From Gordius sp. MW1 (taxonomy: Eukaryota > Nematomorpha > Gordioida > Gordea > Gordiidae), in the NCBI GenBank assembly GCA_964036665.1, contig OZ038531.1:7688168-7752167 (forward strand): DNA of 64,000 nt, read 5' to 3'. Shown here in pieces: positions 32,556 through 64,000 of the stretch. A program made the position numbers and the translations under genes. The notes below the pieces were generated by a model that saw only the letters and a list, made by a program, of their open reading frames with translations, did no database searches and was not told where the DNA came from. Numbering within the stretch: position 1 is the first letter of the stretch; the number at the start of each line of letters is the position of its first letter.

Positions 32556-33269
32556 TAAAGACACGGCCAATGTGATGCCATTCTTGTATCGTATCTCGGC
32601 AAGAATTATAGAAATGAGAAATGTTTTGCCAGTTCCACCTGATGCATCCAAAAAAAAGAAACCAATTGTCCTGCCGAAACTATCAGAATAATGCGGTCGT
32701 AAATGGTTTTTTGTTCATGAGTTAGTGGTGGGACATTGCGAGTAACAATCGCTGCTATTTCTAAAGTTTTGTACTGCAGTTTAAGACTCATATCAGTGTT
32801 GGGTAAACAGATGTACATCGATTTGGTTAACTCATACCAAAATTACTAATTTTAAAATTGGCAATGACAATGCAAAGATTCTATAGCTATCAAAATGCTT
32901 TATTATACATTGCATAACTGAATGATAACGTTAGATCGTTGCACCTCGAAGGATGTCGATATGACCAGTCATTGAATCTTTGCTTATACCACAACGTTTG
33001 TGCTCGGGGTGGGAAACATACAGTCAACTATAGCTAGTAGACGAATTTGTGTTTTTGTATAGTATAATGCTGCTTCATTAAGAATATTGTCCCGATGGTT
33101 GTCGTCTTCTAGCAAGCCTAATCATTTTTACACGCTAGATACTTTTGTCCATTTACTTTACATATATCGTGAAATGACAATGAGCCGGTGCCATTAACCA
33201 ACAACAGTTGCAGTTGAAAGAACTCAGTCTGCCTTGGATTCACTGTATATACACGACGGCGATGATCGA

Positions 33270-39973: not shown

Positions 39974-42900
39974 CTATAAAAAATTGTAAAAATAAATATA
40001 TTGGTAATTTTTTGTAAGGGTTTGTTGATGTGAATAAAGTATCTTTTATATTCATATAGCAATAGATAAGATAATCACTTATTAATATTATGGAGTCTTA
40101 TGAATTATTTTAAATTATTTTTTGACTGCAATGCTTGTTGAGGTTAATTGTTTCCAAAAAAAATTTCATAAAATTGCCAAGAATTGTATAATAGTTTGCA
40201 CTTATAACATAAGATGTCGTTGAAAACGCATGTATAAAAAATATATGTATTCATTTTATGCCCTCATATATGTGCGAAATTAACAAGAAAAAAAGATTAT
40301 AAACAAAGATCTATATAAATTTATTTTAACTACCATAAGTAAATTTTGAATTTTAACAAATTTACAAAATGTTCACTGATGGCGATTATTAGTAAAAACA
40401 AATCTGCCCAAAAATATTTGTCGAGAATAAGCTGTAGAAAAACTTTGCAAATATAAAAAGGTTCAAATCAATATCCTTCTCTTTGACAACATTCTTAAAC
40501 TATGCAAAATGAATTAGATTTGCGTTTTAGTATGGAAGATGAAGGTAGCTAAAAACCGGTATAGGATAATTGACAGGGTTATCTTATGTTTAAATTGACA
40601 CAACGAAAATAGTATTATAACAGATTGTGAGGCTATACAAAATTAAAAAAATTACATACCATTCCTATGTGAAGTAGTGGACGACCTTATTCGTAACGTA
40701 GTTTCCGTTTCTATTTTATCATAATTTTTAATAGTTTGTTGGTATTCAATAGTGATTAATCAGTGATTTTAATCTGATCAAACGGTTACCTTCTTCCCCA
40801 GTAGTGGTCGGTGGAGTTGTTTCTATAGTTTCTGAGCAATAAAATTTTAATGTTAATAACATATTCGATGTTTTAATTACTAATCAAGCAAACATTTATT
40901 CGGCATTAATAAACATAATTGCGTTTAACATATTATTTCTTGTAACTGTTAGAATTGTTTGAATAGGAAGTTTGCAGATATTAAATTATTTTAGACTTTA
41001 TAATAAAAACTTGGTTTTAATTAAGGATTTTTTAATGTGATTATTTGAATATCATATTCATTATTCCTTCAACCTCAGATGGACCAAATTTTTATATTGG
41101 TCTTCAAAAGCCATATGCTTTTTCAGATGAATAGTTGGAACGATTGTTGAAAACTGTATATTGCTGCTCATTAAATGAAAAAGATTTGTGAGTTAATTAG
41201 GACAAAATATTCATTCGTACCTAAAACATTACTCATCTAACAATTATCATTTATTAATAGATGTTCTTTACAATAAAAAACTTGGAAAAAATAGCCCTTA
41301 AATGTTCATATGGTTAAAATTACAATATTTTATGAAAAATTAATTAAACAAAATAATTAATCCACCTTGTTATACAACTGATTTTTATAATTTTACAAGT
41401 ATATTTATTGAAAGAGAAAAAAAATGAAATACATTTGAGATTTGGGGCATATTTTAAATGACACTATTATAGAATAATAGATTTTAAAGGTTTTTTAAAA
41501 CAGAGTGTACAGAAAATTTCGATCTTTGGTCCTAAGTCCACAAAGTAATCATTACTCAAAGTTAACTACTCGGTGTGATAAAATAATTGCAGATATTAAA
41601 TATTAGATATAATCATGGGCGTAGCCAGCATTGGGATTAGAGGGGGGGGGGGCAATAATGATTTAGGAGGGGGCAAAATAATCAATTTTTTGAAATTTTT
41701 GCCATAATTTTAATAAATTTCAACAAATTTTTGGATTTAGAGGGGGGCAGCCGCCCCTCCCTGCCCCCACCCCCTTTGTTACGCCCATGTATATAATCAT
41801 GGGTATAGCCAATAGTTTTAAATTGTGGCAGCTCCTAATCCCTGCATTTCAAAACGCCCATGTAATAAAATGTGTAAGGTACTGACAAATTTAACAGCCC
41901 CCTAATGATAGATAGCATTTTACGTTATGGTAATACAATTAATATATCAACCTATCGGTATAGGTGCTTTTAGTATTTTCATTACATAATATAATAACAT
42001 TAAAAACAACCTTAGTTATGTAATCAAGAATTTACAATCCGTTTATATAAATGTCATTGTATAAAATCGGTGGATTAGGATTGATAGCGTAGGTAGAGGG
42101 AAATGGAACGCGATATTTCTGGCTATAAAAGCCCATCATCAGGGAATTCCCCTGATGATGGGCTTTTATAGCCAGAAATATCGCGTTCCATTTCCCTCTA
42201 CCTACGCTATCTATCCAAATCGACCGATTTTATACAATGACAACCTTAGTTATATACAGTACCATTTTTAATCATAAAATTTTATTTTTATACCTTTTTT
42301 ACAGTCTGAGCTATTACACGTCTTATTTTAACACGCTCGCAAAGGTTAATGTTTGTATTAATTCAAAACTAATTAGCCAAATGCTGAAATGAATAATAAA
42401 AGAAAGGTACCTATTTGATATGTTGTGGTTGTGGGGATCCGACCACGTGAGGTTAAAATCGTTCCTGGAATGGAATCAAATTATATTTTTGCCTTATTGC
42501 TCAATATTAGTTAAAAGAGTTAAGGGTGGATTCAAATAATATTGTGCTTTTCGAAACAAAGCATTTAAAATTGCACAATTGGTGGATAGGAGAGCATCCT
42601 TAACCAATACTTTTAGCATTTTAGAATAACATTTATGATAATAGGATAAAAATAAGAGAAATTTTAATATTTATTTTATAGAAAATTGTTTTGTTATAGT
42701 TGGGACATTAATAGACATTCGCAAATATTTATGTAAAAAAGCTTCGTTTGCTATATCATTGATCAATTTTCCCGCTTTCAATGATATTTAAAATGTTATA
42801 CAAAAGAATACGCTCAATAGTGGAGGTAATTTACAATGCATTTTTGATTTATAGTGGAGTTCAATATTTTATAAATTTAAAACTCCTACGGGATATCTTA

Positions 42901-45900
42901 AGAGCTGTAATTGTTGAAATTAAACCAGTCGAATTTTCTTACTAAATATTATCTTTTAAAATGTATATATTGCGAAAATAAATATTAAATTTTCTACAAA
43001 TGTTTTTAATATCTTGATATGTGCGAAGTATTGCAAATATATAACAAGGCTATGTCCTTCAAATTAAACGTTATATATTGCAGTACCTTTCCTCGAGGTA
43101 AATTTAGTTGGAGTTGAAGTGCTTTCTAAAAACATATCAAAAATTAAAAAATCTCATATTTTATTAGTCATATTTTGAGCAATTATTAATGCCTACCTTT
43201 TCGATATGTTGTGGTAATACGTTCACGCAGGCTAGAAGTTGTCCCTTAAATTAATTAGATTACACATAATTAAGTAGAGTTAGTGTTTAAATTAAGTAGA
43301 GTTGTGTTTGAAAAAATACTTTCATGATATTTTATTCAAGGTGGCTCATATAAAATTAATTTAAAATTATATAAAACAAAATATCTATTTAAGTTAGAAT
43401 TACATAAACATTAAAAATAGAAGCATTGGCAGGCAGGATTGTGGAAGGCGGGGGTAAATTGATAAATCAACTAACAAACTTTTATCAAGAGTCTCGGGTT
43501 TATCATTATTAGTTATTTAAATTTTACAATCAAAATCGTCAGCCTTTCTCCCAAGGACGCAATCTACAATGAGCTCCTTCAATTTTTAAAACCAATGAAT
43601 GAATTATAAATATGCCCGGGACCTTTTAGGCTTAATTGGACCACCTCAAGGAAAAATTAAAAAACATGGGCTCGGCAAAAACTCGTTATAATTAAACTAC
43701 AAGTTGTTTCAAGGTGACGAGTCGAAGTTGTCAAATTTATTTGAAATAGTGAATAATAATTAAGAAGACGCACATTAAATATACTACACATGTTTTTAAT
43801 ATCTTGATAAGAGCAATTTTGCAAAAGTATAACTAGAAGCTGTGTGCTTTAAATTAAACGTTATTTATTGAATATATACCTTTGACAAGAGGTGTGGTGA
43901 TCGTCTTGATCGATGTTCTTGCTGCAACGGTAATCAAAGTTAGAATGACGTAGAAAATACACTCAGATACTCAGTCGAGGTAATTTACAGTATAGTTTTA
44001 ATAAATAATGGAGTTTTATATTCAATAAAGGCAAAATGTAAAATTCTACCGGTAATCTTGGGAGTTGTCGCTGTTTCAACGCGAGTCGAAGTTTCTTAAA
44101 ATCCATTTAAAATTGTATATAATAAATAAGAAGACGCACATTGAATCTACTACACATGTTTTTTTTTAATGTCTTGAGAAATGAGGTTATGCAAAAATTA
44201 TACCTAGAAGCTGTTGAAACTTTATACATATATTGCAGTACCTTTCCTTGAGGTAAATTTATGTGGAGTGGTGCTTTCTAAAAACAAATCAACAGTTAAG
44301 AAGTCGCATAATTAATTGAAGATATTTAAGTGAATTAGTTATTGCTTACCTTTTCGATATGTTGTGGTTCTTCGTTCACGCTGGCTGGAAGTTGTCTCTT
44401 TAAATAGTTTTAATATTTTATGAATATATCCATTTTAAGGGTAATTATTGTTTTCAACCTCTATATTATTCTACAAAATCCTTCATTCAAACAACTACGC
44501 TTAAAATGCGAAGAATAGAATGTCTGAAGATGTTTTTAATGGCTTATGCTTATGAATAATAGATTTGTGATAAAATTACCGTAACATTTTTCGATGATAA
44601 TTTCGATTAGGTGAAGTTGTCCTGTTATCTCGAAATCTCCCAATAAATCACTTACGAATGCATTCTTGTATTTAATTTCAACAATTTTGCCATTTTCGTT
44701 AACCTTCAGGATGACATCTAATCCAATTTGATGAACTTCGATCTAAACATCAAGGAGTTACCATATATGTATGTAATAAGGTTCAGGGAAAAATGATAAT
44801 GAACATATAACTGCACACCGAACTTACTATATTTATATTCTTGGGTATACACAACTTTTTAACGGATTTATTTGGCTTGAAGATTATTAGGCAGACGTAC
44901 AATCCTTTTCCTTTCGGATTTTTTATGGCGCATAGCTATGTAAAACATATATTTAACGTTTTGAGATAAATCTTACGTCACTCTTTATAATGATTCCATA
45001 TGATGATAATTGGTAAATCCAGATGATTTGCTTTTTAATTATTTTAGAAATACTTGAACCAATAGCATTAATAACGAATATATCTTTTCCATCGAATGGA
45101 TACAAGACATTATCGCCTTCTTTGATGAGGTAAACTTGTGCTGGGCTAAAATATAATGAAAATAGATTTAAATAGATTTCGGAGTAGACTTACAAAAATT
45201 GAGGAATGAACGGAATCAAAATTCGAATGATATAGTTGCCGCTCTTGATGATGTAATCGCATATTTCTAGTTTAAGAAAAAAACATGATATAGTTTGTTG
45301 GCATTGAAAAAACAATTAAAAACACATACTCTTGCGGGGAATAGTTGGACATGTTCTAAGGAAGGTTGTACCGGTTTCTATTTTTGAATAAAATTATTAC
45401 AGTAATTATTTTAAAAAATGATATAGCATGTAAGTATTTGACATAAAAGTTAAATCTGCACATAAAGGTGTAGAAACAAAGTTCACCTTCTTCCTCAGTT
45501 GTAGTACGTGGGGTTGAATGAGTTTTGTAGGTTCCTAAATAATAATTAAACAAAGTTAAAGTCGTATAATTTTGAAATAATCTAAATCATTGTAAACGAC
45601 GAATAGTAGCACTACGTCCAAATCGCATTATTGAATTCATACCTTTGGTAAGAGGTGTGGTGATTGTCCTGATCGATGTTCTTCCTGCAACGGTAATAAA
45701 AGTTACAATGCTGTACAAAATACTCTTAACAGTCGAGGTAATTTACAATATACAATAATTTGCATAGATAGTGGAGTTTTATATTGAATAAAGGCAAAAA
45801 GTAAAATTCTACCGGTAATCTTGGGAGTTGTAGTTGTTTCAACGCGACGAGTCGAAGTTTCTTAAAATCAATTTAAAATTGTATATAATAAATAAGAAGA

Positions 45901-48900
45901 CGCACATTGAATCTAATACACATGTTTTTAATATCTTGATAAAAGCGGTTATACAAAAATTATAACTAGAGGCTGTGTGCTTTAAATTAAACGTTATATA
46001 TTGCAGTACCTTTCCTTGAGGTAAATTTATGTGGAGTGGTGCTTTCTAAAAATAAATCATCAGTTAAGAAGTCGCATAATTAATTGAAGATATTTAAGTG
46101 AATTAGTTATTGCTTACCTTTTCGATATGTTGTGGTTCTTCGTTCACGCTGGCTGGAAGTTGTCTCTTTAAATAGTTTTAATATTTTATGAATATATCCA
46201 TTTTAAGGGTAATTATTGTTTTCAGCCTCTATATTATTCTACAAAATCCTTTATTCAAACAACTACGCTTAAAATGCGAAGAATAGAATGTCTGAAGATG
46301 TTTTTAATGGCTTATGCATATGAATAATAGATTTGTGATAAAATTACCGTAACATTTTTCGATGATAATTTCGATTAGGTGAAGTTGTCCTGTTATCTCG
46401 AAATCTCCCAATAAATCACTTACGAATGCATTCTTGTATTTAATTTCAACAATTTTGCCATTTTCGTTAACCTTCAGGATGACATCTAATCCAATTTGAT
46501 GAACTTCGATCTAAACATCAAGGAGTTACCATATATGTATGTAATAAGGTTCAGGGAAAAATGATAATGAACATATAACTGCACACCGAACTTACTATAT
46601 TTATATTCTTGGGTATACACAACTTTTTAACGGATTTATTTGGCTTGAAGATTATTAGGCAGACGTACAATCCTTTTCCTTTCGGATTTTTTATGGCGCA
46701 TAGCTATGTAAAACATATATTTAACGTTTTGAGATAAATCTTACGTCACTCTTTATAATGATTCCATATGATGATAATTGGTAAATCCAGATGATTTGCT
46801 TTTTAATTATTTTAGAAATACTTGAACCAATAGCATTAATAACGAATATATCTTTTCCATCGAATGGATACAAGACATTATCGCCTTCTTTGATGAGGTA
46901 AACTTGTGCTGGGCTAAAATATAATGAAAATAGATTTAAATAGATTTCGGAGTAGACTTACAAAAATTGAGGAATGAACGGAATCAAAATTCGAATGATA
47001 TAGTTGCCGCTCTTGATGATGTAATCGCATATTTCTAGTTTAAGAAAAAAACATGATATAGTTTGTTGGCATTGAAAAAACAATTAAAAACACATACTCT
47101 TGCGGGGAATAGTTGGACATGTTCTAAGGAAGGTTGTACCGGTTTCTATTTTTGAATAAAATTATTACAGTAATTATTTTAAAAAATGATATAGCATGTA
47201 AGTATTTGACATAAAAGTTAAATCTGCACATAAAGGTGTAGAAACAAAGTTCACCTTCTTCCTCGGTTGTAGTACGTGGGGTTGAATGAGTTTTGTAGGT
47301 TCCTAAATAATAATTAAACAAAGTTAAAGTCGTATAATTTTGAAATAATCTAAATCATTGTAAACGACGAATAGTAGCACTAGGTCCAAATCGCATTATT
47401 GAATTCATACCTTTGGTAAGAGGTGTGGTGATTGTCCTGATCGATGTTCTTCCTGCAACGGTAATAAAAGTTACAATGCTGTACAAAATACTCTTAACAG
47501 TCGAGGTAATTTACAATGTACAATAATTTGCATAGATAGTGGAGTTTTATATTGAATAAAGGCAAAAAGTAAAATTCTACCGGTAATCTTGGGAGTTGTA
47601 GTTGTTTCAACGCGACGAGTCGAAGTTTCTTAAAATCAATTTAAAATTGTATATAATAAATAAGAAGACGCACATTGAATCTAATACACATGTTTTTAAT
47701 ATCTTGATAAAAGCGGTTATACAAAAATTATAACTAGAGGCTGTGTGCTTTAAATTAAACGTTATATATTGCAGTACCTTTCCTTGAGGTAAATTTATGT
47801 GGAGTGGTGCTTTCTAAAAATAAATCAACAGTTAAGAAGTCGCATAATTAATTGAAGATATTTAAGTGAATTAGTTATTGCTTACCTTTTCGATATGTTG
47901 TGGTTCTTCGTTCACGCTGGCTGGAAGTTGTCTCTTTAAATAGTTTTAATATTTTATGAATATATCCATTTTAAGGGTAATTATTGTTTTCAACCTCTAT
48001 ATTATTCTACAAAATCCTTTATTCAAACAACTACGCTTAAAATGCGAAGAATAGAATGTCTGAAGATGTTTTAAATGGCTTATGCATATGAATAATAGAT
48101 TTGTGATAAAATTACCGTAACATTTTTCGATGATAATTTCGATTAGGTGAAGTTGTCCTGTTATCTCGAAATCTCCCAATAAATCACTTACGAATGCATT
48201 CTTGTATTTAATTTCAACAATTTTGCCATTTTCGTTAACCTTCAGGATGACATCTAATCCAATTTGATGAACTTCGATCTAAACATCAAGGAGTTACCAT
48301 ATATGTATGTAATAAGGTTCAGGGAAAAATGATAATGAACATATAACTGCACACCGAACTTACTATATTTATATTCTTGGGTATACACAACTTTTTAACG
48401 GATTTATTTGGCTTGAAGATTATTAGGCAAACGTACAATCCTTTTCCTTTCGGATTTTTTATGGCGCATAGCTATGTAAAACATATATTTAACGTTTTGA
48501 GATGAATCTTACGTCACTCTTTATAATGATTCCATATGATGATAATTGGTAAATCCAGATGATTTGCTTTTTAATTATTTTAGAAATACTTGAACCAATA
48601 GCATTAATAACGAATATATCTTTTCCATCGAATGGATACAAGACATTATCGCCTTCTTTGATAAGGTAAACTTGTGCTGGGCTAAAATATAATGAAAATA
48701 GATTTAAATAGATTTCGGAGTAGACTTACAAAAATTGAGGAATGAACGGAATCAAAATTCGAATGATATAGTTGCCGCTCTTGATGATGTAATCGCATAT
48801 TTCTAGTTTAATAAAAAAACATGATATAGTTTGTTAACAATTAAAAACACATACTCTTGCGGGGAATAGTTGGACGTGTTCTAAGGAAGGTTGTACCGGT

Positions 48901-51900
48901 TTCTATTTTTGAATAAAATTATTACAGTAATTATTTTAAAAAATGATATAGCATGTAAATATTTGACATAAAAGTTAAATCTGCACATAAAGGTGTAGAA
49001 ACAAAGTTCACCTTCTTCCTCAGTTGTAGTACGTGGGGTTGAATGAGTTTTGTAGGTTCCTAAATAATAATTAAACAAAGTTAAAGTCGTATAATTTTGA
49101 AATAATCTAAATCATTGTAAACGACGAATAGTAGCACTACGTCCAAATCGCATTATTGAATTCATACCTTTGGTAAGAGGTGTGGTGATTGTCCTGATCG
49201 ATGTTCTTCCTGCAACGGTAATAAAAGTTACAATGCTGTACAAAATACTCTTAACAGTCGAGGTAATTTACAATATACAATAATTTGCATAGATAGTGGA
49301 GTTTTATATTGAATAAAGGCAAAAAGTAAAATTCTACCGGTAATCTTGGGAGTTGTAGTTGTTTCAACGCGACGAGTCGAAGTTTCTTAAAATCAATTTA
49401 AAATTGTATATAATAAATAAGAAGACGCACATTGAATCAAATACACATGTTTTTAATATCTTGATAAAAGCGGTTATACAAAAATTATAACTAGATCTGT
49501 GTGCTTTAAATTAAACGTTATATATTGCAGTACCTTTCCTTGAGGTAAATTTATGTGGAGTGGTGCTTTCTAAAAATAAATCATCAGTTAAGAAGTCGCA
49601 TAATTAATTGAAGATATTTAAGTGAATTAGTTATTGCTTACCTTTTCGATATGTTGTGGTTCTTCGTTCACGCTGGCTGGAAGTTGTCTCTTTAAATAGT
49701 TTTAATATTTTATGAATATATCCATTTTAAGGGTAATTATTGTTTTCAGCCTCTATATTATTCTACAAAATCCTTTATTCAAACAACTACGCTTAAAATG
49801 CGAAGAATAGAATGTCTGAAGATGTTTTTAATGGCTTATGCATATGAATAATAGATTTGTGATAAAATTACCGTAACATTTTTCGATGATAATTTCGATT
49901 AGGTGAAGTTGTCCTGTTATCTCGAAATCTCCCAATAAATCACTTACGAATGCATTCTTGTATTTAATTTCAACAATTTTGCCATTTTCGTTAACCTTCA
50001 GGATGACATCTAATCCAATTTGATGAACTTCGATCTAAACATCAAGGAGTTACCATATATGTATGTAATAAGGTTCAGGGAAAAATGATAATGAACATAT
50101 AACTGCACACCGAACTTACTATATTTATATTCTTGGGTATACACAACTTTTTAACGGATTTATTTGGCTTGAAGATTATTAGGCAGACGTACAATCCTTT
50201 TCCTTTCGGATTTTTTATGGCGCATAGCTATGTAAAACATATATTTAACGTTTTGAGATAAATCTTACGTCACTCTTTATAATGATTCCATATGATGATA
50301 ATTGGTAAATCCAGATGATTTGCTTTTTAATTATTTTAGAAATACTTGAACCAATAGCATTAATAACGAATATATCTTTTCCATCGAATGGATACAAGAC
50401 ATTATCGCCTTCTTTGATGAGGTAAACTTGTGCTGGGCTAAAATATAATGAAAATAGATTTAAATAGATTTCGGAGTAGACTTACAAAAATTGAGGAATG
50501 AACGGAATCAAAATTCGAATGATATAGTTGCCGCTCTTGATGATGTAATCGCATATTTCTAGTTTAAGAAAAAAACATGATATAGTTTGTTGGCATTGAA
50601 AAAACAATTAAAAACACATACTCTTGCGGGGAATAGTTGGACGTGTTCTAAGGAAGGTTGTACCGGTTTCTATTTTTGAATAAAATTATTACAGTAATTA
50701 TTTTAAAAAATGATATAGCATGTAAGTATTTGACATAAAAGTTAAATCTGCACATAAAGGTGTAGAAACAAAGTTCACCTTCTTCCTCGGTTGTAGTACG
50801 TGGGGTTGAATGAGTTTTGTAGGTTCCTAAATAATAATTAAACAAAGTTAAAGTCGTATAATTTTGAAATAATCTAAATCATTGTAAACGACGAATAGTA
50901 GCACTACGTCCAAATCGCATTATTGAATTCATACCTTTGGTAAGAGGTGTGGTGATTGTCCTGATCGATGTTCTTCCTGCAACGGTAATAAAAGTTACAA
51001 TGCTGTACAAAATACTCTTAACAGTCGAGGTAATTTACAATGTACAATAATTTGCATAAATAGTGGAGTTTTATATTGAATAAAGGCAAAAAGTAAAATT
51101 CTACCGGTAATCTTGGGAGTTGTAGTTGTTTCAACGCGACGAGTCGAAGTTTCTTAAAATCAATTTAAAATTGTATATAATAAATAAGAAGACGCACATT
51201 GAATCTAATACACATGTTTTTAATATCTTGATAAAAGCGGTTATACAAAAATTATAACTAGAGGCTGTGTGCTTTAAATTAAACGTTATATATTGCAGTA
51301 CCTTTCCTTGAGGTAAATTTATGTGGAGTGGTGCTTTCTAAAAATAAATCGACAGTTAAGAAGTCGCATAATTAATTGAAGATATTTAAGTGAATTAGTT
51401 ATTGCTTACCTTTTCGATATGTTGTGGTTCTTCGTTCACGCTGGCTGGAAGTTGTCTCTTTAAATAGTTTTAATATTTTATGAATATATCCATTTTAAGG
51501 GTAATTATTGTTTTCAACCTCTATATTATTCTACAAAATCCTTTATTCAAACAACTACGCTTAAAATGCGAAGAATAGAATGTCTGAAGATGTTTTAAAT
51601 GGCTTATGCATATGAATAATAGATTTGTGATAAAATTACCGTAACATTTTTCGATGATAATTTCGATTAGGTGAAGTTGTCCTGTTATCTCGAAATCTCC
51701 CAATAAATCACTTACGAATGCATTCTTGTATTTAATTTCAACAATTTTGCCATTTTCGTTAACCTTCAGGATGACATCTAATCCAATTTGATGAACTTCG
51801 ATCTAAACATCAAGGAGTTACCATATATGTATGTAATAAGGTTCAGGGAAAAATGATAATGAACATATAACTGCACACCGAACTTACTATATTTATATTC

Positions 51901-54900
51901 TTGGGTATACACAACTTTTTAACGGATTTATTTGGCTTGAAGATTATTAGGCAGACGTACAATCCTTTTCCTTTCGGATTTTTTATGGCGCATAGCTATG
52001 TAAAACATATATTTAACGTTTTGAGATAAATCTTACGTCACTCTTTATAATGATTCCATATGATGATAATTGGTAAATCCAGATGATTTGCTTTTTAATT
52101 ATTTTAGAAATACTTGAACCAATAGCATTAATAACGAATATATCTTTTCCATCGAATGGATACAAGACATTATCGCCTTCTTTGATGAGGTAAACTTGTG
52201 CTGGGCTAAAATATAATGAAAATAGATTTAAATAGATTTCGGAGTAGACTTACAAAAATTGAGGAATGAACGGAATCAAAATTCGAATGATATAGTTGCC
52301 GCTCTTGATGATGTAACCGCATATTTCTAGTTTAAGAAAAAAACATGATATAGTTTGTTGGCATTGAAAAAACAATTAAAAACACATACTCTTGCGGGGA
52401 ATAGTTGGACGTGTTCTAAGGAAGGTTGTACCGGTTTCTATTTTTGAATAAAATTATTACAGTAATTATTTTAAAAAATGATATAGCATGTAAGTATTTG
52501 ACATAAAAGTTAAATCTGCACATAAAGGTGTAGAAACAAAGTTCACCTTCTTCCTCGGTTGTAGTACGTGGGGTTGAATGAGTTTTGTAGGTTCCTAAAT
52601 AATAATTAAACAAAGTTAAAGTCGTATAATTTTGAAATAATCTAAATCATTGTAAACGACGAATAGTAGCACTACGTCCAAATCGCATTATTGAATTCAT
52701 ACCTTTGGTAAGAGGTGTGGTGATTGTCCTGATCGATGTTCTTCCTGCAACGGTAATAAAAGTTACAATGCTGTACAAAATACTCTTAACAGTCGAGGTA
52801 ATTTACAATGTACAATAATTTGCATAAATAGTGGAGTTTTATATTGAATAAAGGCAAAAAGTAAAATTCTACCGGTAATCTTGGGAGTTGTAGTTGTTTC
52901 AACGCGACGAGTCGAAGTTTCTTAAAATCAATTTAAAATTGTATATAATAAATAAGAAGACGCACATTGAATCTAATACACATGTTTTTAATATCTTGAT
53001 AAAAGCGGTTATACAAAAATTATAACTAGAGGCTGTGTGCTTTAAATTAAACGTTATATATTGCAGTACCTTTCCTTGAGGTAAATTTATGTGGAGTGGT
53101 GCTTTCTAAAAATAAATCGACAGTTAAGAAGTCGCATAATTAATTGAAGATATTTAAGTGAATTAGTTATTGCTTACCTTTTCGATATGTTGTGGTTCTT
53201 CGTTCACGCTGGCTGGAAGTTGTCTCTTTAAATAGTTTTAATATTTTATGAATATATCCATTTTAAGGGTAATTATTGTTTTCAACCTCTATATTATTCT
53301 ACAAAATCCTTTATTCAAACAACTACGCTTAAAATGCGAAGAATAGAATGTCTGAAGATGTTTTTAATGGCTTATGCATATGAATAATAGATTTGTGATA
53401 AAATTACCGTAACATTTTTCGATGATAATTTCGATTAGGTGAAGTTGTCCTGTTATCTCGAAATCTCCCAATAAATCACTTACGAATGCATTCTTGTATT
53501 TAATTTCAACAATTTTGCCATTTTCGTTAACCTTCAGGATGACATCTAATCCAATTTGATGAACTTCGATCTAAACATCAAGGAGTTACCATATATGTAT
53601 GTAATAAGGTTCAGGGAAAAATGATAATGAACATATAACTGCACACCGAACTTACTATATTTATATTCTTGGGTATACACAACTTTTTAACGGATTTATT
53701 TGGCTTGAAGATTATTAGGCAGACGTACAATCCTTTTCCTTTCGGATTTTTTATGGCGCATAGCTATGTAAAACATATATTTAACGTTTTGAGATAAATC
53801 TTACGTCACTCTTTATAATGATTCCATATGATGATAATTGGTAAATCCAGATGATTTGCTTTTTAATTATTTTAGAAATACTTGAACCAATAGCATTAAT
53901 AACGAATATATCTTTTCCATCGAATGGATACAAGACATTATCGCCTTCTTTGATGAGGTAAACTTGTGCTGGGCTAAAATATAATGAAAATAGATTTAAA
54001 TAGATTTCGGAGTAGACTTACAAAAATTGAGGAATGAACGGAATCAAAATTCGAATGATATAGTTGCCGCTCTTGATGATGTAACCGCATATTTCTAGTT
54101 TAAGAAAAAAACATGATATAGTTTGTTGGCATTGAAAAAACAATTAAAAACACATACTCTTGCGGGGAATAGTTGGACGTGTTCTAAGGAAGGTTGTACC
54201 GGTTTCTATTTTTGAATAAAATTATTACAGTAATTATTTTAAAAAATGATATAGCATGTAAGTATTTGACATAAAAGTTAAATCTGCACATAAAGGTGTA
54301 GAAACAAAGTTCACCTTCTTCCTCGGTTGTAGTACGTGGGGTTGAATGAGTTTTGTAGGTTCCTAAATAATAATTAAACAAAGTTAAAGTCGTATAATTT
54401 TGAAATAATCTAAATCATTGTAAACGACGAATAGTAGCACTACGTCCAAATCGCATTATTGAATTCATACCTTTGGTAAGAGGTGTGGTGATTGTCCTGA
54501 TCGATGTTCTTCCTGCAACGGTAATAAAAGTTACAATGCTGTACAAAATACTCTTAACAGTCGAGGTAATTTACAATGTACAATAATTTGCATAAATAGT
54601 GGAGTTTTATATTGAATAAAGGCAAAAAGTAAAATTCTACCGGTAATCTTGGGAGTTGTAGTTGTTTCAACGCGACGAGTCGAAGTTTCTTAAAATCAAT
54701 TTAAAATTGTATATAATAAATAAGAAGACGCACATTGAATCTAATACACATGTTTTTAATATCTTGATAAAAGCGGTTATACAAAAATTATAACTAGAGG
54801 CTGTGTGCTTTAAATTAAACGTTATATATTGCAGTACCTTTCCTTGAGGTAAATTTATGTGGAGTGGTGCTTTCTAAAAATAAATCGACAGTTAAGAAGT

Positions 54901-57900
54901 CGCATAATTAATTGAAGATATTTAAGTGAATTAGTTATTGCTTACCTTTTCGATATGTTGTGGTTCTTCGTTCACGCTGGCTGGAAGTTGTCTCTTTAAA
55001 TAGTTTTAATATTTTATGAATATATCCATTTTAAGGGTAATTATTGTTTTCAACCTCTATATTATTCTACAAAATCCTTTATTCAAACAACTACGCTTAA
55101 AATGCGAAGAATAGAATGTCTGAAGATGTTTTTAATGGCTTATGCATATGAATAATAGATTTGTGATAAAATTACCGTAACATTTTTCGATGATAATTTC
55201 GATTAGGTGAAGTTGTCCTGTTATCTCGAAATCTCCCAATAAATCACTTACGAATGCATTCTTGTATTTAATTTCAACAATTTTGCCATTTTCGTTAACC
55301 TTCAGGATGACATCTAATCCAATTTGATGAACTTCGATCTAAACATCAAGGAGTTACCATATATGTATGTAATAAGGTTCAGGGAAAAATGATAATGAAC
55401 ATATAACTGCACACCGAACTTACTATATTTATATTCTTGGGTATACACAACTTTTTAACGGATTTATTTGGCTTGAAGATTATTAGGCAGACGTACAATC
55501 CTTTTCCTTTCGGATTTTTTATGGCGCATAGCTATGTAAAACATATATTTAACGTTTTGAGATAAATCTTACGTCACTCTTTATAATGATTCCATATGAT
55601 GATAATTGGTAAATCCAGATGATTTGCTTTTTAATTATTTTAGAAATACTTGAACCAATAGCATTAATAACGAATATATCTTTTCCATCGAATGGATACA
55701 AGACATTATCGCCTTCTTTGATGAGGTAAACTTGTGCTGGGCTAAAATATAATGAAAATAGATTTAAATAGATTTCGGAGTAGACTTACAAAAATTGAGG
55801 AATGAACGGAATCAAAATTCGAATGATATAGTTGCCGCTCTTGATGATGTAATCGCATATTTCTAGTTTAAGAAAAAAACATGATATAGTTTGTTGGCAT
55901 TGAAAAAACAATTAAAAACACATACTCTTGCGGGGAATAGTTGGACGTGTTCTAAGGAAGGTTGTACCGGTTTCTATTTTTGAATAAAATTATTACAGTA
56001 ATTATTTTAAAAAATGATATAGCATGTAAGTATTTGACATAAAAGTTAAATCTGCACATAAAGGTGTAGAAACAAAGTTCACCTTCTTCCTCGGTTGTAG
56101 TACGTGGGGTTGAATGAGTTTTGTAGGTTCCTAAATAATAATTAAACAAAGTTAAAGTCGTATAATTTTGAAATAATCTAAATCATTGTAAACGACGAAT
56201 AGTAGCACTACGTCCAAATCGCATTATTGAATTCATACCTTTGGTAAGAGGTGTGGTGATTGTCCTGATCGATGTTCTTCCTGCAACGGTAATAAAAGTT
56301 ACAATGCTGTACAAAATACTCTTAACTGTCGAGGTAATTTACAATGTACAATAATTTGCATAAATAGTGGAGTTTTATATTGAATAAAGGCAAAAAGTAA
56401 AATTCTACCGGTAATCTTGGGAGTTGTAGTTGTTTCAACGCGACGAGTCGAAGTTTCTTAAAATCAATTTAAAATTGTATATAATAAATAAGAAGACGCA
56501 CATTGAATCTAATACACATGTTTTTAATATCTTGATAAAAGCGGTTATACAAAAATTATAACTAGAGGCTGTGTGCTTTAAATTAAACGTTATATATTGC
56601 AGTACCTTTCCTTGAGGTAAATTTATGTGGAGTGGTGCTTTCTAAAAATAAATCAACAGTTAAGAAGTCGCATAATTAATTGAAGATATTTAAGTGAATT
56701 AGTTATTGCTTACCTTTTCGATATGTTGTGGTTCTTCGTTCACGCTGGCTGGAAGTTGTCTCTTTAAATAGTTTTAATATTTTATGAATATATCCATTTT
56801 AAGGGTAATTATTGTTTTCAACCTCTATATTATTCTACAAAATCCTTTATTCAAACAACTACGCTTAAAATGCGAAGAATAGAATGTCTGAAGATGTTTT
56901 TAATGGCTTATGCATATGAATAATAGATTTGTGATAAAATTACCGTAACATTTTTCGATGATAATTTCGATTAGGTGAAGTTGTCCTGTTATCTCGAAAT
57001 CTCCCAATAAATCACTTACGAATGCATTCTTGTATTTAATTTCAACAATTTTGCCATTTTCGTTAACCTTCAGGATGACATCTAATCCAATTTGATGAAC
57101 TTCGATCTAAACATCAAGGAGTTACCATATATGTATGTAATAAGGTTCAGGGAAAAATGATAATGAACATATAACTGCACACCGAACTTACTATATTTAT
57201 ATTCTTGGGTATACACAACTTTTTAACGGATTTATTTGGCTTGAAGATTATTAGGCAAACGTACAATCCTTTTCCTTTCGGATTTTTTATGGCGCATAGC
57301 TATGTAAAACATATATTTAACGTTTTGAGATGAATCTTACGTCACTCTTTATAATGATTCCATATGATGATAATTGGTAAATCCAGATGATTTGCTTTTT
57401 AATTATTTTAGAAATACTTGAACCAATAGCATTAATAACGAATATATCTTTTCCATCGAATGGATACAAGACATTATCGCCTTCTTTGATAAGGTAAACT
57501 TGTGCTGGGCTAAAATATAATGAAAATAGATTTAAATAGATTTCGGAGTAGACTTACAAAAATTGAGGAATGAACGGAATCAAAATTCGAATGATATAGT
57601 TGCCGCTCTTGATGATGTAATCGCATATTTCTAGTTTAAGAAAAAAACATGATATAGTTTGTTAACAATTAAAAACACATACTCTTGCGGGGAATAGTTG
57701 GACGTGTTCTAAGGAAGGTTGTACCGGTTTCTATTTTTGAATAAAATTATTACAGTAATTATTTTAAAAAATGATATAGCATGTAAATATTTGACATAAA
57801 AGTTAAATCTGCACATAAAGGTGTAGAAACAAAGTTCACCTTCTTCCTCGGTTGTAGTACGTGGGGTTGAATGAGTTTTGTAGGTTCCTAAATAATAATT

Positions 57901-60900
57901 AAACAAAGTTAAAGTCGTATAATTTTGAAATAATCTAAATCATTGTAAACGACGAATAGTAGCACTACGTCCAAATCGCATTATTGAATTCATACCTTTG
58001 GTAAGAGGTGTGGTGATTGTCCTGATCGATGTTCTTCCTGCAACGGTAATAAAAGTTACAATGCTGTACAAAATACTCTTAACAGTCGAGGTAATTTACA
58101 ATGTACAATAATTTGCATAAATAGTGGAGTTTTATATTGAATAAAGGCAAAAAGTAAAATTCTACCGGTAATCTTGGGAGTTGTAGTTGTTTCAACGCGA
58201 CGAGTCGAAGTTTCTTAAAATCAATTTAAAATTGTATATAATAAATAAGAAGACGCACATTGAATCAAATACACATGTTTTTAATATCTTGATAAAAGCG
58301 GTTATACAAAAATTATAACTAGATCTGTGTGCTTTAAATTAAACGTTATATATTGCAGTACCTTTCCTTGAGGTAAATTTATGTGGAGTGGTGCTTTCTA
58401 AAAATAAATCATCAGTTAAGAAGTCGCATAATTAATTGAAGATATTTAAGTGAATTAGTTATTGCTTACCTTTTCGATATGTTGTGGTTCTTCGTTCACG
58501 CTGGCTGGAAGTTGTCTCTTTAAATAGTTTTAATATTTTATGAATATATCCATTTTAAGGGTAATTATTGTTTTCAACCTCTATATTATTCTACAAAATC
58601 CTTTATTCAAACAACTACGCTTAAAATGCGAAGAATAGAATGTCTGAAGATGTTTTTAATGGCTTATGCATATGAATAATAGATTTGTGATAAAATTACC
58701 GTAACATTTTTCGATGATAATTTCGATTAGGTGAAGTTGTCCTGTTATCTCGAAATCTCCCAATAAATCACTTACGAATGCATTCTTGTATTTAATTTCA
58801 ACAATTTTGCCATTTTCGTTAACCTTCAGGATGACATCTAATCCAATTTGATGAACTTCGATCTAAACATCAAGGAGTTACCATATATGTATGTAATAAG
58901 GTTCAGGGAAAAATGATAATGAACATATAACTGCACACCGAACTTACTATATTTATATTCTTGGGTATACACAACTTTTTAACGGATTTATTTGGCTTGA
59001 AGATTATTAGGCAAACGTACAATCCTTTTCCTTTCGGATTTTTTATGGCGCATAGCTATGTAAAACATATATTTAACGTTTTGAGATGAATCTTACGTCA
59101 CTCTTTATAATGATTCCATATGATGATAATTGGTAAATCCAGATGATTTGCTTTTTAATTATTTTAGAAATACTTGAACCAATAGCATTAATAACGAATA
59201 TATCTTTTCCATCGAATGGATACAAGACATTATCGCCTTCTTTGATAAGGTAAACTTGTGCTGGGCTAAAATATAATGAAAATAGATTTAAATAGATTTC
59301 GGAGTAGACTTACAAAAATTGAGGAATGAACGGAATCAAAATTCGAATGATATAGTTGCCGCTCTTGATGATGTAATCGCATATTTCTAGTTTAAGAAAA
59401 AAACATGATATAGTTTGTTAACAATTAAAAACACATACTCTTGCGGGGAATAGTTGGACGTGTTCTAAGGAAGGTTGTACCGGTTTCTATTTTTGAATAA
59501 AATTATTACAGTAATTATTTTAAAAAATGATATAGCATGTAAATATTTGACATAAAAGTTAAATCTGCACATAAAGGTGTAGAAACAAAGTTCACCTTCT
59601 TCCTCGGTTGTAGTACGTGGGGTTGAATGAGTTTTGTAGGTTCCTAAATAATAATTAAACAAAGTTAAAGTCGTATAATTTTGAAATAATCTAAATCATT
59701 GTAAACGACGAATAGTAGCACTACGTCCAAATCGCATTATTGAATTCATACCTTTGGTAAGAGGTGTGGTGATTGTCCTGATCGATGTTCTTCCTGCAAC
59801 GGTAATAAAAGTTACAATGCTGTACAAAATACTCTTAACAGTCGAGGTAATTTACAATGTACAATAATTTGCATAAATAGTGGAGTTTTATATTGAATAA
59901 AGGCAAAAAGTAAAATTCTACCGGTAATCTTGGGAGTTGTAGTTGTTTCAACGCGACGAGTCGAAGTTTCTTAAAATCAATTTAAAATTGTATATAATAA
60001 ATAAGAAGACGCACATTGAATCAAATACACATGTTTTTAATATCTTGATAAAAGCGGTTATACAAAAATTATAACTAGATCTGTGTGCTTTAAATTAAAC
60101 GTTATATATTGCAGTACCTTTCCTTGAGGTAAATTTATGTGGAGTGGTGCTTTCTAAAAATAAATCATCAGTTAAGAAGTCGCATAATTAATTGAAGATA
60201 TTTAAGTGAATTAGTTATTGCTTACCTTTTCGATATGTTGTGGTTCTTCGTTCACGCTGGCTGGAAGTTGTCTCTTTAAATAGTTTTAATATTTTATGAA
60301 TATATCCATTTTAAGGGTAATTATTGTTTTCAGCCTCTATATTATTCTACAAAATCCTTTATTCAAACAACTACGCTTAAAATGCGAAGAATAGAATGTC
60401 TGAAGATGTTTTTAATGGCTTATGCATATGAATAATAGATTTGTGATAAAATTACCGTAACATTTTTCGATGATAATTTCGATTAGGTGAAGTTGTCCTG
60501 TTATCTCGAAATCTCCCAATAAATCACTTACGAATGCATTCTTGTATTTAATTTCAACAATTTTGCCATTTTCGTTAACCTTCAGGATGACATCTAATCC
60601 AATTTGATGAACTTCGATCTAAACATCAAGGAGTTACCATATATGTATGTAATAAGGTTCAGGGAAAAATGATAATGAACATATAACTGCACACCGAACT
60701 TACTATATTTATATTCTTGGGTATACACAACTTTTTAACGGATTTATTTGGCTTGAAGATTATTAGGCAGACGTACAATCCTTTTCCTTTCGGATTTTTT
60801 ATGGCGCATAGCTATGTAAAACATATATTTAACGTTTTGAGATAAATCTTACGTCACTCTTTATAATGATTCCATATGATGATAATTGGTAAATCCAGAT

Positions 60901-63900
60901 GATTTGCTTTTTAATTATTTTAGAAATACTTGAACCAATAGCATTAATAACGAATATATCTTTTCCATCGAATGGATACAAGACATTATCGCCTTCTTTG
61001 ATGAGGTAAACTTGTGCTGGGCTAAAATATAATGAAAATAGATTTAAATAGATTTCGGAGTAGACTTACAAAAATTGAGGAATGAACGGAATCAAAATTC
61101 GAATGATATAGTTGCCGCTCTTGATGATGTAATCGCATATTTCTAGTTTAGGAAAAAACATGATATAGTTTGTTGGCATTGAAAAAACAATTAAAAACAC
61201 ATACTCTTGCGGGGAATAGTTGGACGTGTTCTAAGGAAGGTTGTACCGGTTTCTATTTTTGAATAAAATTATTACAGTAATTATTTTAAAAAATGATATA
61301 GCATGTAAGTATTTGACATAAAAGTTAAATCTGCACATAAAGGTGTAGAAACAAAGTTCACCTTCTTCCTCGGTTGTAGTACGTGGGGTTGAATGAGTTT
61401 TGTAGGTTCCTAAATAATAATTAAACAAAGTTAAAGTCGTATAATTTTGAAATAATCTAAATCATTGTAAACGACGAATAGTAGCACTACGTCCAAATCG
61501 CATTATTGAATTCATACCTTTGGTAAGAGGTGTGGTGATTGTCCTGATCGATGTTCTTCCTGCAACGGTAATAAAAGTTACAATGCTGTACAAAATACTC
61601 TTAACAGTCGAGGTAATTTACAATGTACAATAATTTGCATAAATAGTGGAGTTTTATATTGAATAAAGGCAAAAAGTAAAATTCTACCGGTAATCTTGGG
61701 AGTTGTAGTTGTTTCAACGCGACGAGTCGAAGTTTCTTAAAATCAATTTAAAATTGTATATAATAAATAAGAAGACGCACATTGAATCTAATACACATGT
61801 TTTTAATATCTTGATAAAAGCGGTTATACAAAAATTATAACTAGAGGCTGTGTGCTTTAAATTAAACGTTATATATTGCAGTACCTTTCCTTGAGGTAAA
61901 TTTATGTGGAGTGGTGCTTTCTAAAAATAAATCGACAGTTAAGAAGTCGCATAATTAATTGAAGATATTTAAGTGAATTAGTTATTGCTTACCTTTTCGA
62001 TATGTTGTGGTTCTTCGTTCACGCTGGCTGGAAGTTGTCTCTTTAAATAGTTTTAATATTTTATGAATATATCCATTTTAAGGGTAATTATTGTTTTCAA
62101 CCTCTATATTATTCTACAAAATCCTTTATTCAAACAACTACGCTTAAAATGCGAAGAATAGAATGTCTGAAGATGTTTTTAATGGCTTATGCATATGAAT
62201 AATAGATTTGTGATAAAATTACCGTAACATTTTTCGATGATAATTTCGATTAGGTGAAGTTGTCCTGTTATCTCGAAATCTCCCAATAAATCACTTACGA
62301 ATGCATTCTTGTATTTAATTTCAACAATTTTGCCATTTTCGTTAACCTTCAGGATGACATCTAATCCAATTTGATGAACTTCGATCTAAACATCAAGGAG
62401 TTACCATATATGTATGTAATAAGGTTCAGGGAAAAATGATAATGAACATATAACTGCACACCGAACTTACTATATTTATATTCTTGGGTATACACAACTT
62501 TTTAACGGATTTATTTGGCTTGAAGATTATTAGGCAGACGTACAATCCTTTTCCTTTCGGATTTTTTATGGCGCATAGCTATGTAAAACATATATTTAAC
62601 GTTTTGAGATAAATCTTACGTCACTCTTTATAATAATTCCATATGATGATAATTGGTAAATCCAGATGATTTGCTTTTTAATTATTTTAGAAATACTTGA
62701 ACCAATAGCATTAATAACGAATATATCTTTTCCATCGAATGGATACAAGACATTATCGCCTTCTTTGATGAGGTAAACTTGTGCTGGGCTAAAATATAAT
62801 GAAAATAGATTTAAATAGATTTCGGAGTAGACTTACAAAAATTGAGGAATGAACGGAATCAAAATTCGAATGATATAGTTGCCGCTCTTGATGATGTAAT
62901 CGCATATTTCTAGTTTAAGAAAAAAACATGATATAGTTTGTTGGCATTGAAAAAACAATTAAAAACACATACTCTTGCGGGGAATAGTTGGACGTGTTCT
63001 AAGGAAGGTTGTACCGGTTTCTATTTTTGAATAAAATTATTACAGTAATTATTTTAAAAAATGATATAGCATGTAAGTATTTGACATAAAAGTTAAATCT
63101 GCACATAAAGGTGTAGAAACAAAGTTCACCTTCTTCCTCGGTTGTAGTACGTGGGGTTGAATGAGTTTTGTAGGTTCCTAAATAATAATTAAACAAAGTT
63201 AAAGTCGTATAATTTTGAAATAATCTAAATCATTGTAAACGACGAATAGTAGCACTACGTCCAAATCGCATTATTGAATTCATACCTTTGGTAAGAGGTG
63301 TGGTGATTGTCCTGATCGATGTTCTTCCTGCAACGGTAATAAAAGTTACAATGCTGTACAAAATACTCTTAACTGTCGAGGTAATTTACAATGTACAATA
63401 ATTTGCATAAATAGTGGAGTTTTATATTGAATAAAGGCAAAAAGTAAAATTCTACCGGTAATCTTGGGAGTTGTAGTTGTTTCAACGCGACGAGTCGAAG
63501 TTTCTTAAAATCAATTTAAAATTGTATATAATAAATAAGAAGACGCACATTGAATCTAATACACATGTTTTTAATATCTTGATAAAAGCGGTTATACAAA
63601 AATTATAACTAGAGGCTGTGTGCTTTAAATTAAACGTTATATATTGCAGTACCTTTCCTTGAGGTAAATTTATGTGGAGTGGTGCTTTCTAAAAATAAAT
63701 CAACAGTTAAGAAGTCGCATAATTAATTGAAGATATTTAAGTGAATTAGTTATTGCTTACCTTTTCGATATGTTGTGGTTCTTCGTTCACGCTGGCTGGA
63801 AGTTGTCTCTTTAAATAGTTTTAATATTTTATGAATATATCCATTTTAAGGGTAATTATTGTTTTCAACCTCTATATTATTCTACAAAATCCTTTATTCA

Positions 63901-64000
63901 AACAACTACGCTTAAAATGCGAAGAATAGAATGTCTGAAGATGTTTTTAATGGCTTATGCATATGAATAATAGATTTGTGATAAAATTACCGTAACATTT
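35449..64000 (-). CDS. Giant modular micro-exon repeat protein gene (5' end outside window)
   Basis: I do not recognise the family. The coding path is assembled from short GT-AG exons whose phases agree throughout: almost all internal exons are 24-60 bases, divisible by three and bounded by phase-1 introns, so each can be added or removed without breaking the frame. From 5' to 3' there are eleven complete copies (plus part of another) of a 245-residue unit, several divergent Thr/Pro/Arg linker exons, then about 604 residues of non-repeated sequence ending KELGGE and TGA (35449-35451). Linkers dense in Thr, Pro, Ser and Arg suggest an extended, possibly glycosylated surface or secreted protein; that is inference, since the signal peptide would lie upstream of the window. 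Some intermediate exons between 40 and 44 kb may be missed. Confidence 0.72.
40660..44094 (-). CDS. Divergent Thr/Pro/Arg linker exons between array and 3' part
   Basis: Exons 40660-40710 (TETTLRIRSSTTSHRN), 40790-40831 (TIETTPPTTTGEE), 42411-42464 (TILTSRGRIPTTTTYQ), 43087-43125 (STSTPTKFTSRK), 43197-43244 (TTSSLRERITTTYRK), 43880-43921 (RTSIKTITTPLVK) and 44050-44094 (TSTRVETATTPKIT) are all in frame, phase 1 to phase 1. They are visibly paralogous to the linker exons of the tandem units but diverged by substitutions and codon-sized indels, so they are older duplicates. Transposon and hairpin insertions between 41.6 and 42.3 kb lie in their introns. Confidence 0.65.
41615..41788. mobile_element. 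GGGCGTAGCC-family element in an intron of the micro-exon gene
   Basis: ATGGGCGTAGCCAGC to GTTACGCCCAT. Flanks AGATATAATC and GTATATAATC share eight bases, an aged 10-bp target duplication. Confidence 0.8.
41799..41864. mobile_element. Short degraded GGGCGTAGCC-family copy
   Basis: ATGGGTATAGCC to AACGCCCAT, 66 bp, placed ten bases after the previous copy. It may be a deletion derivative of the same family. Confidence 0.5.
42053..42241. repeat. 189-bp near-perfect palindrome (fold-back)
   Basis: From GTCATTGTATAAAATCGG to CCGATTTTATACAATGAC the sequence is self-complementary. The inner arms (about 42085-42210) are almost exact around a central GGGAATTCCC; only the outer arm region at about 42071-42083 has several mismatches. 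CAACCTTAGTTAT occurs at both sides (42007-42019 and 42241-42253). It could be a fold-back transposon or a hairpin-forming insertion in an intron. Confidence 0.85.
44210..45355 (-). repeat. Array unit U0 (left, transcript-last, partial)
   Basis: It contains exons 45194-45266, 44977-45145, 44828-44935, 44580-44742, 44350-44397 and 44242-44277, coding EICDYIIKSG through ESTTPHKFTSRK. Its further linker exons (44050 and 43880) are already divergent. It marks the edge of homogenisation. Confidence 0.85.
45356..47123 (-). repeat. Array unit U1 (1768 bp), reference exon map
   Basis: In transcript order: 46962-47034 (EICDYIIKSG...), 46745-46913 (PAQVYLIKEGDN...), 46596-46703 (LCAIKNPKGKGLYV...), 46348-46510 (IEVHQIGLDV...EKCYG), then linkers 46118-46165 (TTSSQRERRTTTYRK), 46010-46045 (STTPHKFTSRK), 45813-45860 (TSTRRVETTTTPKIT), 45643-45684 (RTSIRTITTPLTK) and 45487-45534 (TYKTHSTPRTTTEEE). 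Total 735 bases, 245 residues. A possible extra 26-base exon lies at 45330-45355, just outside the left edge. Confidence 0.82.
47124..48880 (-). repeat. Array unit U2 (1757 bp)
   Basis: Exon layout as U1. Its right part carries the variant block (GGCAAACGT at about 48427, GATAAGG at about 48661) and an 11-base deletion near 48831. It also has TTTAAATGG instead of TTTTTAATGG near 48067, shared with U4. Confidence 0.82.
48881..50647 (-). repeat. Array unit U3 (1767 bp)
   Basis: Exon layout as U1. The left part continues the variant block (AAATATTTGAC near 48957, CTAGATCTGTG near 49491, 1 base shorter). The rest is standard and shares CCTCAGTTG and CAATATACAA with U1. Confidence 0.82.
50648..52415 (-). 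repeat. Array unit U4 (1768 bp)
   Basis: Standard unit with the TTTAAATGG intron variant near 51594 shared with U2. In exon EICDYIIKSG the site near 52317 is GTAACC, which changes Asp to Gly in the assumed frame. Confidence 0.82.
52416..54183 (-). repeat. Array unit U5 (1768 bp)
   Basis: Standard unit. It shares the GTAACC (Asp to Gly) variant near 54084 with U4. Confidence 0.82.
54184..55951 (-). repeat. Array unit U6 (1768 bp)
   Basis: Standard unit, differing from U5 at very few sites (GTAATC near 55851). Confidence 0.82.
55952..57708 (-). repeat. Array unit U7 (1757 bp)
   Basis: The right part carries the same variant block and 11-base deletion as U2 (GGCAAACGT near 57254). CTTAACTGTC near 56332 is shared with U11. 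Confidence 0.82.
57709..59464 (-). repeat. Array unit U8 (1756 bp)
   Basis: The left part has the variant block (CTAGATCTGTG near 58320) and the right part has it again (GGCAAACGT near 59011, deletion near 59418). It is variant at both ends. Confidence 0.82.
59465..61230 (-). repeat. Array unit U9 (1766 bp)
   Basis: The left part is variant as in U3 and U8; the right part is standard, with a one-base shorter A run near 61150. Confidence 0.82.
61231..62998 (-). repeat. Array unit U10 (1768 bp)
   Basis: Standard unit. It has one private synonymous change in the PAQVYLIKEG exon (ATAATAATTCC near 62633, Ile codon). Confidence 0.82.
62999..64000 (-). repeat. Array unit U11 (partial, cut by window end)
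   Basis: The five linker exons and the first ten bases of the IEVHQ...KCYG exon are present. The array continues beyond the window. Confidence 0.82.

What the first reader, a model, noticed from the sequence alone, without database searches (positions are those of the whole stretch)
44210..64000. A giant gene made by tandem amplification of a 1.77-kb, nine-exon module
Seen directly: at least eleven near-identical units, each with nine exons that join in one frame (735 bases) and with introns as conserved as exons. Inference: they encode one continuous repeat protein of more than 2,700 residues in the window alone, rather than eleven genes. No unit has a recognisable start codon, stop codon, signal peptide or poly(A) site, and the last linker exon of each unit joins the first domain exon of the next in phase 1.
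Basis: partly seen in the sequence, partly recalled or inferred. Interest (0 to 1): 0.88.

Follow-up and report, generated by a model that had tools for sequence, protein, structure and literature searches.

The report
Giant gene of amplified ten-exon modules
Part of an animal gene, perhaps from a sap-sucking insect, has been copied head to tail about eleven times almost without change, so that it seems to encode a very long chain of near-identical protein units of an unknown kind; genes are known to grow this way, but this unit is unusually complex.

Summary
The array is real: ten full units of 1,756-1,768 bp plus 1,653 bp of an eleventh, 98.5-100% identical, running off the right edge. The gene lies on the minus strand. 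A four-exon block (171 residues, 5 Cys, no match above cut-off in Pfam, NCBIfam or PDB) alternates with six threonine-rich micro-exons. Block and linkers are phase-1 symmetric, so any number of units splices in frame; 112 exons join into 2,898 stop-free codons. No two of the ten compared units are identical; coding differences are few and mostly silent (4 silent, 2 replacing, p=0.024). Older diverged linker exons lie on the 3' side. Further left, same strand, is a run of about eleven phase-1 micro-exons resembling 'bicycle' effector genes of aphids and relatives. Best reading: one giant, probably extracellular repeat-protein gene, lengthened and homogenised by unequal exchange. It fails the published bicycle/megacycle structure rule. 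Transcript, 5' end, organism and function are untested.

The parts
44705..64000 (-). Tandem array: ten full units of 1,756-1,768 bp and 1,653 bp of an eleventh, continuing beyond the window; eleven four-exon blocks
   Evidence: blastn of one unit, 98.5-100% identity; exon coordinates; joined open frame
46348..47034 (-). One representative block: exons J 46962-47034, A 46745-46913, B 46596-46703, C 46348-46510; 171 residues, 5 Cys, unknown fold
   Evidence: no match above cut-off in Pfam, PDB, NCBIfam
45330..46165 (-). One representative linker set: exons D 46118-46165, E 46010-46045, F 45813-45860, G 45643-45684, H 45487-45534, I 45330-45377; 90 residues, 31 Thr, net charge +11, phase 1-1 each
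43880..44397 (-). Linker exons D, E, F (45 nt) and G after the last block, G and F diverged
42890..43244 (-). Older diverged linker exons D (43197-43244), E (43087-43125), F (42890-42937)
   Evidence: 81% DNA identity over 42995-43251; 42851-43150 scores 309 against shuffle maximum 111
40660..40831 (-). Older diverged linker exons matching H (40790-40831) and I (40660-40710)
   Evidence: DNA score 109 against shuffle maximum 85, 0 of 100 shuffles, splice sites aligned
39628..39973 (-). Further candidate T-rich phase 1-1 exons (39926-39973, 39850-39873, 39731-39784, 39628-39678); weak
   Evidence: three found by the scan for T-rich exons, 39850-39873; no significant DNA similarity to the unit (12 and 16 of 100 shuffles do as well)
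36857..38074 (-). Run of about eleven phase 1-1 micro-exons (45-60 nt): a bicycle-like neighbouring gene or the tail of the giant gene
   Evidence: exon list; chain of 9 by fixed criteria, best elsewhere 4

Best explanation
This is the 3' side of one giant gene on the minus strand. It encodes a repeat protein, probably extracellular, of many copies of a 261-residue unit: a 171-residue cysteine-containing block of unknown fold and a 90-residue basic linker with 31 threonines. Shown: the array, the exons, the open frame, phase-1 symmetry of block and linkers, near-identity of exons and introns, the small excess of silent changes, and older linker copies on the 3' side. Inferred: because every unit begins and ends in phase 1 and all its parts, introns included, are alike, unequal exchange or gene conversion can add, remove and homogenise units without breaking the frame, so protein length evolves as copy number. 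Inferred more weakly: the protein is secreted, T-rich linkers act as O-glycosylated spacers and cysteines form disulfides, giving a long multivalent chain, perhaps a salivary or sheath component of a sap-feeding hemipteran, because a bicycle-like micro-exon gene lies beside it. My odds: one continuous gene 0.77 (lowered from 0.8 after rereading); unequal exchange or conversion as mechanism 0.85; secreted 0.6; hemipteran salivary role 0.35.
For: Ten near-identical units plus part of an eleventh; ten exons per unit with intact splice sites in eleven copies; 2,898 open codons over 112 exons; no methionine in the unit; 4 silent of 174 sites against 2 replacing of 609, p=0.024; all four combinations of variants at alignment columns 140 and 975, showing exchange between units; older copies with an outward identity gradient 92.5, 85, 81% and surviving H-I exons; a phase-1 micro-exon run on the same strand.
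Against: No RNA, no 5' end, no signal peptide, no secure 3' end. Near-identity makes eleven intact copies close to one observation. The silent/replacement test rests on six columns. The linker exons are also open in a second frame, and the most diverged F copy has fewer silent changes in the T-rich frame (1 of 14) than in the other (5 of 15). No diverged copy of the block was found left of 44.5 kb (best tblastn E=1.1). A possible start inside each unit exists. The organism is not identified.
Confidence: 0.6

Rival explanations
1. Eleven or more separate tandem genes, each giving its own short protein, recently duplicated.
For: An out-of-frame ATG inside exon A (57474 or 57456 in one unit) opens a hydrophobic stretch of 19 or 13 residues with a GTATTT donor in phase for exon B; reading past the donor of exon C meets a stop with an AATAAA in the following intron. 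Together these could make a short secreted protein per unit.
Against: It would leave exons J and A and six linker exons without a role, although all keep splice sites and frame; of 29 ATGs only five ATG-donor pairs of ten or more residues fit the next exon's phase, two of them this overlapping hydrophobic pair; poly(A) hexamers are at the chance level.
Confidence: 0.1
2. A non-coding satellite born from a gene fragment: the array is amplified DNA that no longer makes one protein.
For: Exons and introns are about equally uniform (6 of 783 and 15 of 984 variable, p=0.19), as in a young satellite; no expression data.
Against: No disabling change among the six exonic variants, an excess of silent ones, and old linker exons that stay open (though partly selected for this).
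Confidence: 0.08
3. Same gene, but the product is a polyprotein cut at basic sites in the linkers into many identical 261-residue pieces.
For: One RERR (furin-type, recalled consensus) and further dibasic sites in each linker.
Against: The linker is rich in Arg and Lys, so such sites are expected by composition; the older D copy lacks RERR.
Confidence: 0.15
4. Assembly artefact: one or a few units multiplied by the assembler.
For: The array reaches the window edge and read depth is not available.
Against: No two of ten compared units are identical (1-14 substitutions apart), three are 12 bp shorter, and variants are shuffled between units. The exact copy number remains uncertain.
Confidence: 0.04

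Closest known systems
LPA kringle IV type 2 array and nebulin triplicate region (human genes grown by intragenic tandem duplication)
   Same: A multi-exon module repeated in tandem inside one gene: LPA KIV-2 5.6 kb per unit, 1-40 units (PMC11462820, abstract in listing); nebulin eight exons repeated three times (PMC9109913, abstract in listing).
   Different: Other proteins and animals; here ten exons per unit, six of them 36-48 nt, in about eleven copies within the window. One transcript is proven there (recalled), not here.
Spider MaSp2 and flagelliform silk genes with homogenised repeat introns
   Same: Repeat units carry introns homogenised with the exons: mean 97.6% intron identity within Argiope MaSp2 genes (PMC9779670, passages).
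   Different: One or two intron types per unit and low-complexity silk repeats; here ten intron types and a complex block.
Aphid megacycle gene (bicycle gene family)
   Same: A giant gene of more than 100 exons grown by internal tandem duplication, about 2,000 residues (PMC9168663, section 12); micro-exons starting at codon position 2.
   Different: Megacycle repeats are diverged and about 140 residues (2,092/15) with micro-exons throughout; here units are near-identical, 261 residues, with four larger exons of mixed phase; the published classifier rejects it. No sequence of a megacycle gene was compared.
Pea aphid KQY/KHI cassette effectors
   Same: Secreted salivary candidates encoded by many miniature exons (PMC7495047, passages).
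   Different: Large genes for small proteins (KQY1a: 37 exons, 204 residues), not repeat arrays; no sequence compared.

Membership tests
Bicycle/megacycle genes | Almost all internal exons start at codon position 2 | tested here: not met
   7 of 10 exons per unit do; A starts at position 3, B and C at position 1 (rule from passages of PMC9168663). The six linker exons alone meet it.
Bicycle/megacycle genes | Accepted by the published gene-structure classifier (cut-off 0.72) | tested here: not met
   One unit 1.7e-7 or 1.5e-6, eleven units below 1e-60, under two readings of the phase labels and with guessed first and last exon lengths; linkers alone pass (above 0.99); a megacycle with published dimensions passes, 0.9995.
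Bicycle/megacycle genes | N-terminal secretion signal and salivary-gland expression | not testable with these tools
   5' end beyond the window; no RNA data.
Bicycle/megacycle genes | Sequence similarity to a known member | not tested
   No collection with insect proteins was available.
Genes grown by intragenic tandem duplication of multi-exon modules (LPA, nebulin type) | Near-identical multi-exon units in tandem, introns included | tested here: met
   98.5-100% over whole units; 15 of 984 intronic positions variable.
Genes grown by intragenic tandem duplication of multi-exon modules (LPA, nebulin type) | Unit is phase-symmetric and the frame runs through all units | tested here: met
   Phase 1 in and out; 2,898 codons without a stop.
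Genes grown by intragenic tandem duplication of multi-exon modules (LPA, nebulin type) | A single transcript crosses the units | not testable with these tools

The most novel reading that the evidence does not exclude
A sap-feeding insect carries an expandable 'polymer gene': an unknown cysteine-containing block and a set of phase-1 threonine-rich micro-exons, the same exon type as in bicycle effector genes, have fused into a module that unequal exchange can add or remove freely. The product would be a giant secreted chain, or a polyprotein cut into many identical doses, whose length varies between individuals and which forms a class of salivary protein distinct from megacycle.
Probability: 0.2. 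Interest if true: 0.8.

Novelty: new variant of a known kind. Interest (0 to 1): 0.56.

Why it matters
If one transcript crosses the array, this is a clean natural case of gene growth by copying of an exon module: ten exons per unit, about eleven near-identical copies in the window, and a decayed record of older units on the 3' side. It would allow copy number to be tied to protein length within a species, and would test whether phase-1 micro-exons, a hallmark of aphid-type effector genes, act as interchangeable parts for building new secreted proteins. Such arrays are easily collapsed in short-read assemblies and missed by annotation.

Tried and rejected
Reading the linker exons in the second open frame: all six are open there too, but that frame conflicts with the phases of exons C and J, and old copies of F, H and I have stops in it. 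The old D and E copies are open in both.

My own exon-chaining gene finder: in its control stretch it put D and I at shifted sites, read E, G and H in frame 0, and skipped F and J and shortened B, so its model left of the array is not relied on.

A homologous pair that I thought I saw by eye at 35.5-35.8 and 38.3-38.4 kb: no local alignment, dropped. Fold of exon C alone: mean pLDDT 58.9, not used for a fold search.

Homologues: Pfam gave only DUF2283 at E=0.062, below its cut-off; PDB best E=1.5; NCBIfam none; viral contigs none (exon C only); prokaryote genomes none (whole block). No Rfam family at gathering score in the window. Diverged blocks left of 44.5 kb: best tblastn E=1.1.

Taxon: no genome held; the hemipteran placing rests on the neighbour's exon structure alone. 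Schistosome micro-exon genes were considered: a listing describes exons of 3-81 bp with introns up to 5 kbp (PMC10526429, abstract in listing); introns here are 41-182 bp.

Full report
Observation. The window is 31% G+C and no genome is held for it; its many short GT-AG introns mark it as eukaryotic. From about 44 kb to the right edge nearly every 15-mer recurs, on average about ten times, with a main offset of 1,768 bp. A unit probe gives ten full periods and 1,653 bp of an eleventh at 98.5-100% identity, with older partial copies at 43865-44704 (92.5%), 43702-43870 (85%) and 42995-43251 (81%).

Anatomy. The gene runs on the minus strand. Each unit has ten exons: a block of four (J 73, A 169, B 108, C 163 nt) and six linker exons (D 48, E 36, F 48, G 42, H 48, I 48 nt), 783 nt or 261 residues. 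Eleven copies of each exon have AG before and GT after them. Introns of the unit measured are 41-182 bp. The block as a whole and each linker exon enter and leave in phase 1. From the first linker exon at the right edge (63808) to exon E at 44242, 112 exons join into 8,697 nt and 2,898 codons with no stop. The unit protein has no methionine. The block has 171 residues with 5 cysteines; the linker has 90 residues with 31 threonines, net charge +11, one RERR and further dibasic sites.

Which frame. The linker exons are open in two frames. The T-rich frame is the one demanded by the phase out of exon C and into exon J, and in the other frame old copies of F, H and I have stops. Between exon D and its older copy, 2 of 5 changed bases are silent in the T-rich frame, against 0 of 6 in the other; for G the counts are 1 of 4 and 1 of 5; for the most diverged F copy they go the other way, 1 of 14 against 5 of 15. 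Part of this is selected: most 3' exons were listed by a scan that required the T-rich frame and lengths divisible by three. The D, E, F (45 nt) and G copies between 43880 and 44397 and the old D at 43197-43244 were also found by similarity without that requirement.

One gene or many. Of 29 sense-strand ATGs in a unit, five ATG-donor pairs of ten or more residues fit the phase of the next exon; two of these, overlapping in exon A in another frame, open with a hydrophobic stretch and could join exon B. With the stop met beyond exon C and an AATAAA in the next intron, a short protein per unit is conceivable. Poly(A) hexamers as a whole are at the chance level (7 against 6.7 expected).

History of the array. 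The ten units from exon J to exon J differ pairwise by 1 to 14 substitutions, three are 12 bp shorter, and no two are identical. Two protein variants occur among the ten: D4G in two units and R255C in two. Alignment columns 140 and 975 show all four combinations, so exchange or conversion acted between units. Counting each variable column once, 6 of 783 exonic and 15 of 984 intronic positions vary (p=0.19); 4 changes are silent (174 sites) and 2 replace a residue (609 sites), p=0.024. This is a small sample and treats columns as independent. On the 3' side the DNA of the old E-F stretch (score 309, shuffle maximum 111) and of old H-I (109, maximum 85) is clearly related to the unit; old D-E is 81% identical. 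Three other candidate stretches (42360-42520, 39900-40000, 39600-39900) are not supported (3, 12 and 16 of 100 shuffles score as high), and two control stretches gave 43 and 30 of 100. No diverged block was found left of 44.5 kb. The identity gradient fits an array that exchanges inside and decays at its edge.

Surroundings. Further left on the same strand, between 36857 and 38074, lies a run of about eleven short exons (45-60 nt), all phase 1-1, about 100 bp apart. With fixed criteria the chain there is 9 exons; among 204 strand, phase and 1.3-kb bins over the first 44.2 kb, the best outside this region is 4. A stricter scan gave 3 there against at most 1 elsewhere. This is the exon type of bicycle genes, whose internal exons start at codon position 2 (PMC9168663, passages) and which are reported from aphids, phylloxera and coccids (section 11). 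A chain of these predicted exons matches no Pfam family. Whether this is a separate gene or the tail of the giant gene is open; no secure stop codon or poly(A) site of the giant gene was established.

Homology. The unit or block matches nothing above cut-off in Pfam, NCBIfam or PDB sequences; scans of viral contigs (exon C only) and prokaryote genomes (whole block) gave no relative. No eukaryotic sequence collection was available, so absence of relatives in insects is not shown.

Mechanism. Best reading: one gene whose product is a giant chain of 261-residue units, lengthened and homogenised by unequal exchange or conversion, which the phase-1 symmetry of the unit makes harmless to the frame. 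That it is extracellular is inferred from the cysteines and T-rich linkers; that it is salivary is a guess from the neighbour.

Relation to known things. Intragenic amplification of multi-exon modules is known: LPA KIV-2 (5.6 kb per unit, 1-40 units; abstract in listing) and nebulin (eight exons repeated three times; abstract in listing). Homogenised repeat introns are known in spider MaSp2 and flagelliform genes (passages). The megacycle gene of aphids is nearest in likely taxon and scale (section 12), but the unit fails the exon-phase rule and the published classifier (first and last exon lengths were guessed), so I do not file it there. I call it a new variant of a known kind. My paper searches, read as listings, showed no description of this gene; with organism and name unknown, that is weak evidence.

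Noticed in passing
36857-38074 (minus): A run of about eleven phase 1-1 micro-exons of 45-60 nt, bicycle-like in structure.
   Followed up: partly
22116-27912 (plus): Parts of a formin-like gene: an FH2 match at E=2.6e-5, below the Pfam cut-off, and a long open exon of 633 codons.
   Followed up: partly
32499-32714 (minus): PIF1-like helicase fragment above the Pfam cut-off (28.4 against 25.9 bits), perhaps a Helitron remnant (recalled).
   Followed up: no
45330-46165 (minus) and its copies: All six linker exons are open in two reading frames.
   Followed up: partly
18070-18287: Two-copy tandem repeat of 109 bp, 90% matches.
   Followed up: no
35513-35965 (minus): Open frame of 150 codons with several cysteines; a piece of it has no Pfam match above cut-off.
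   Followed up: no
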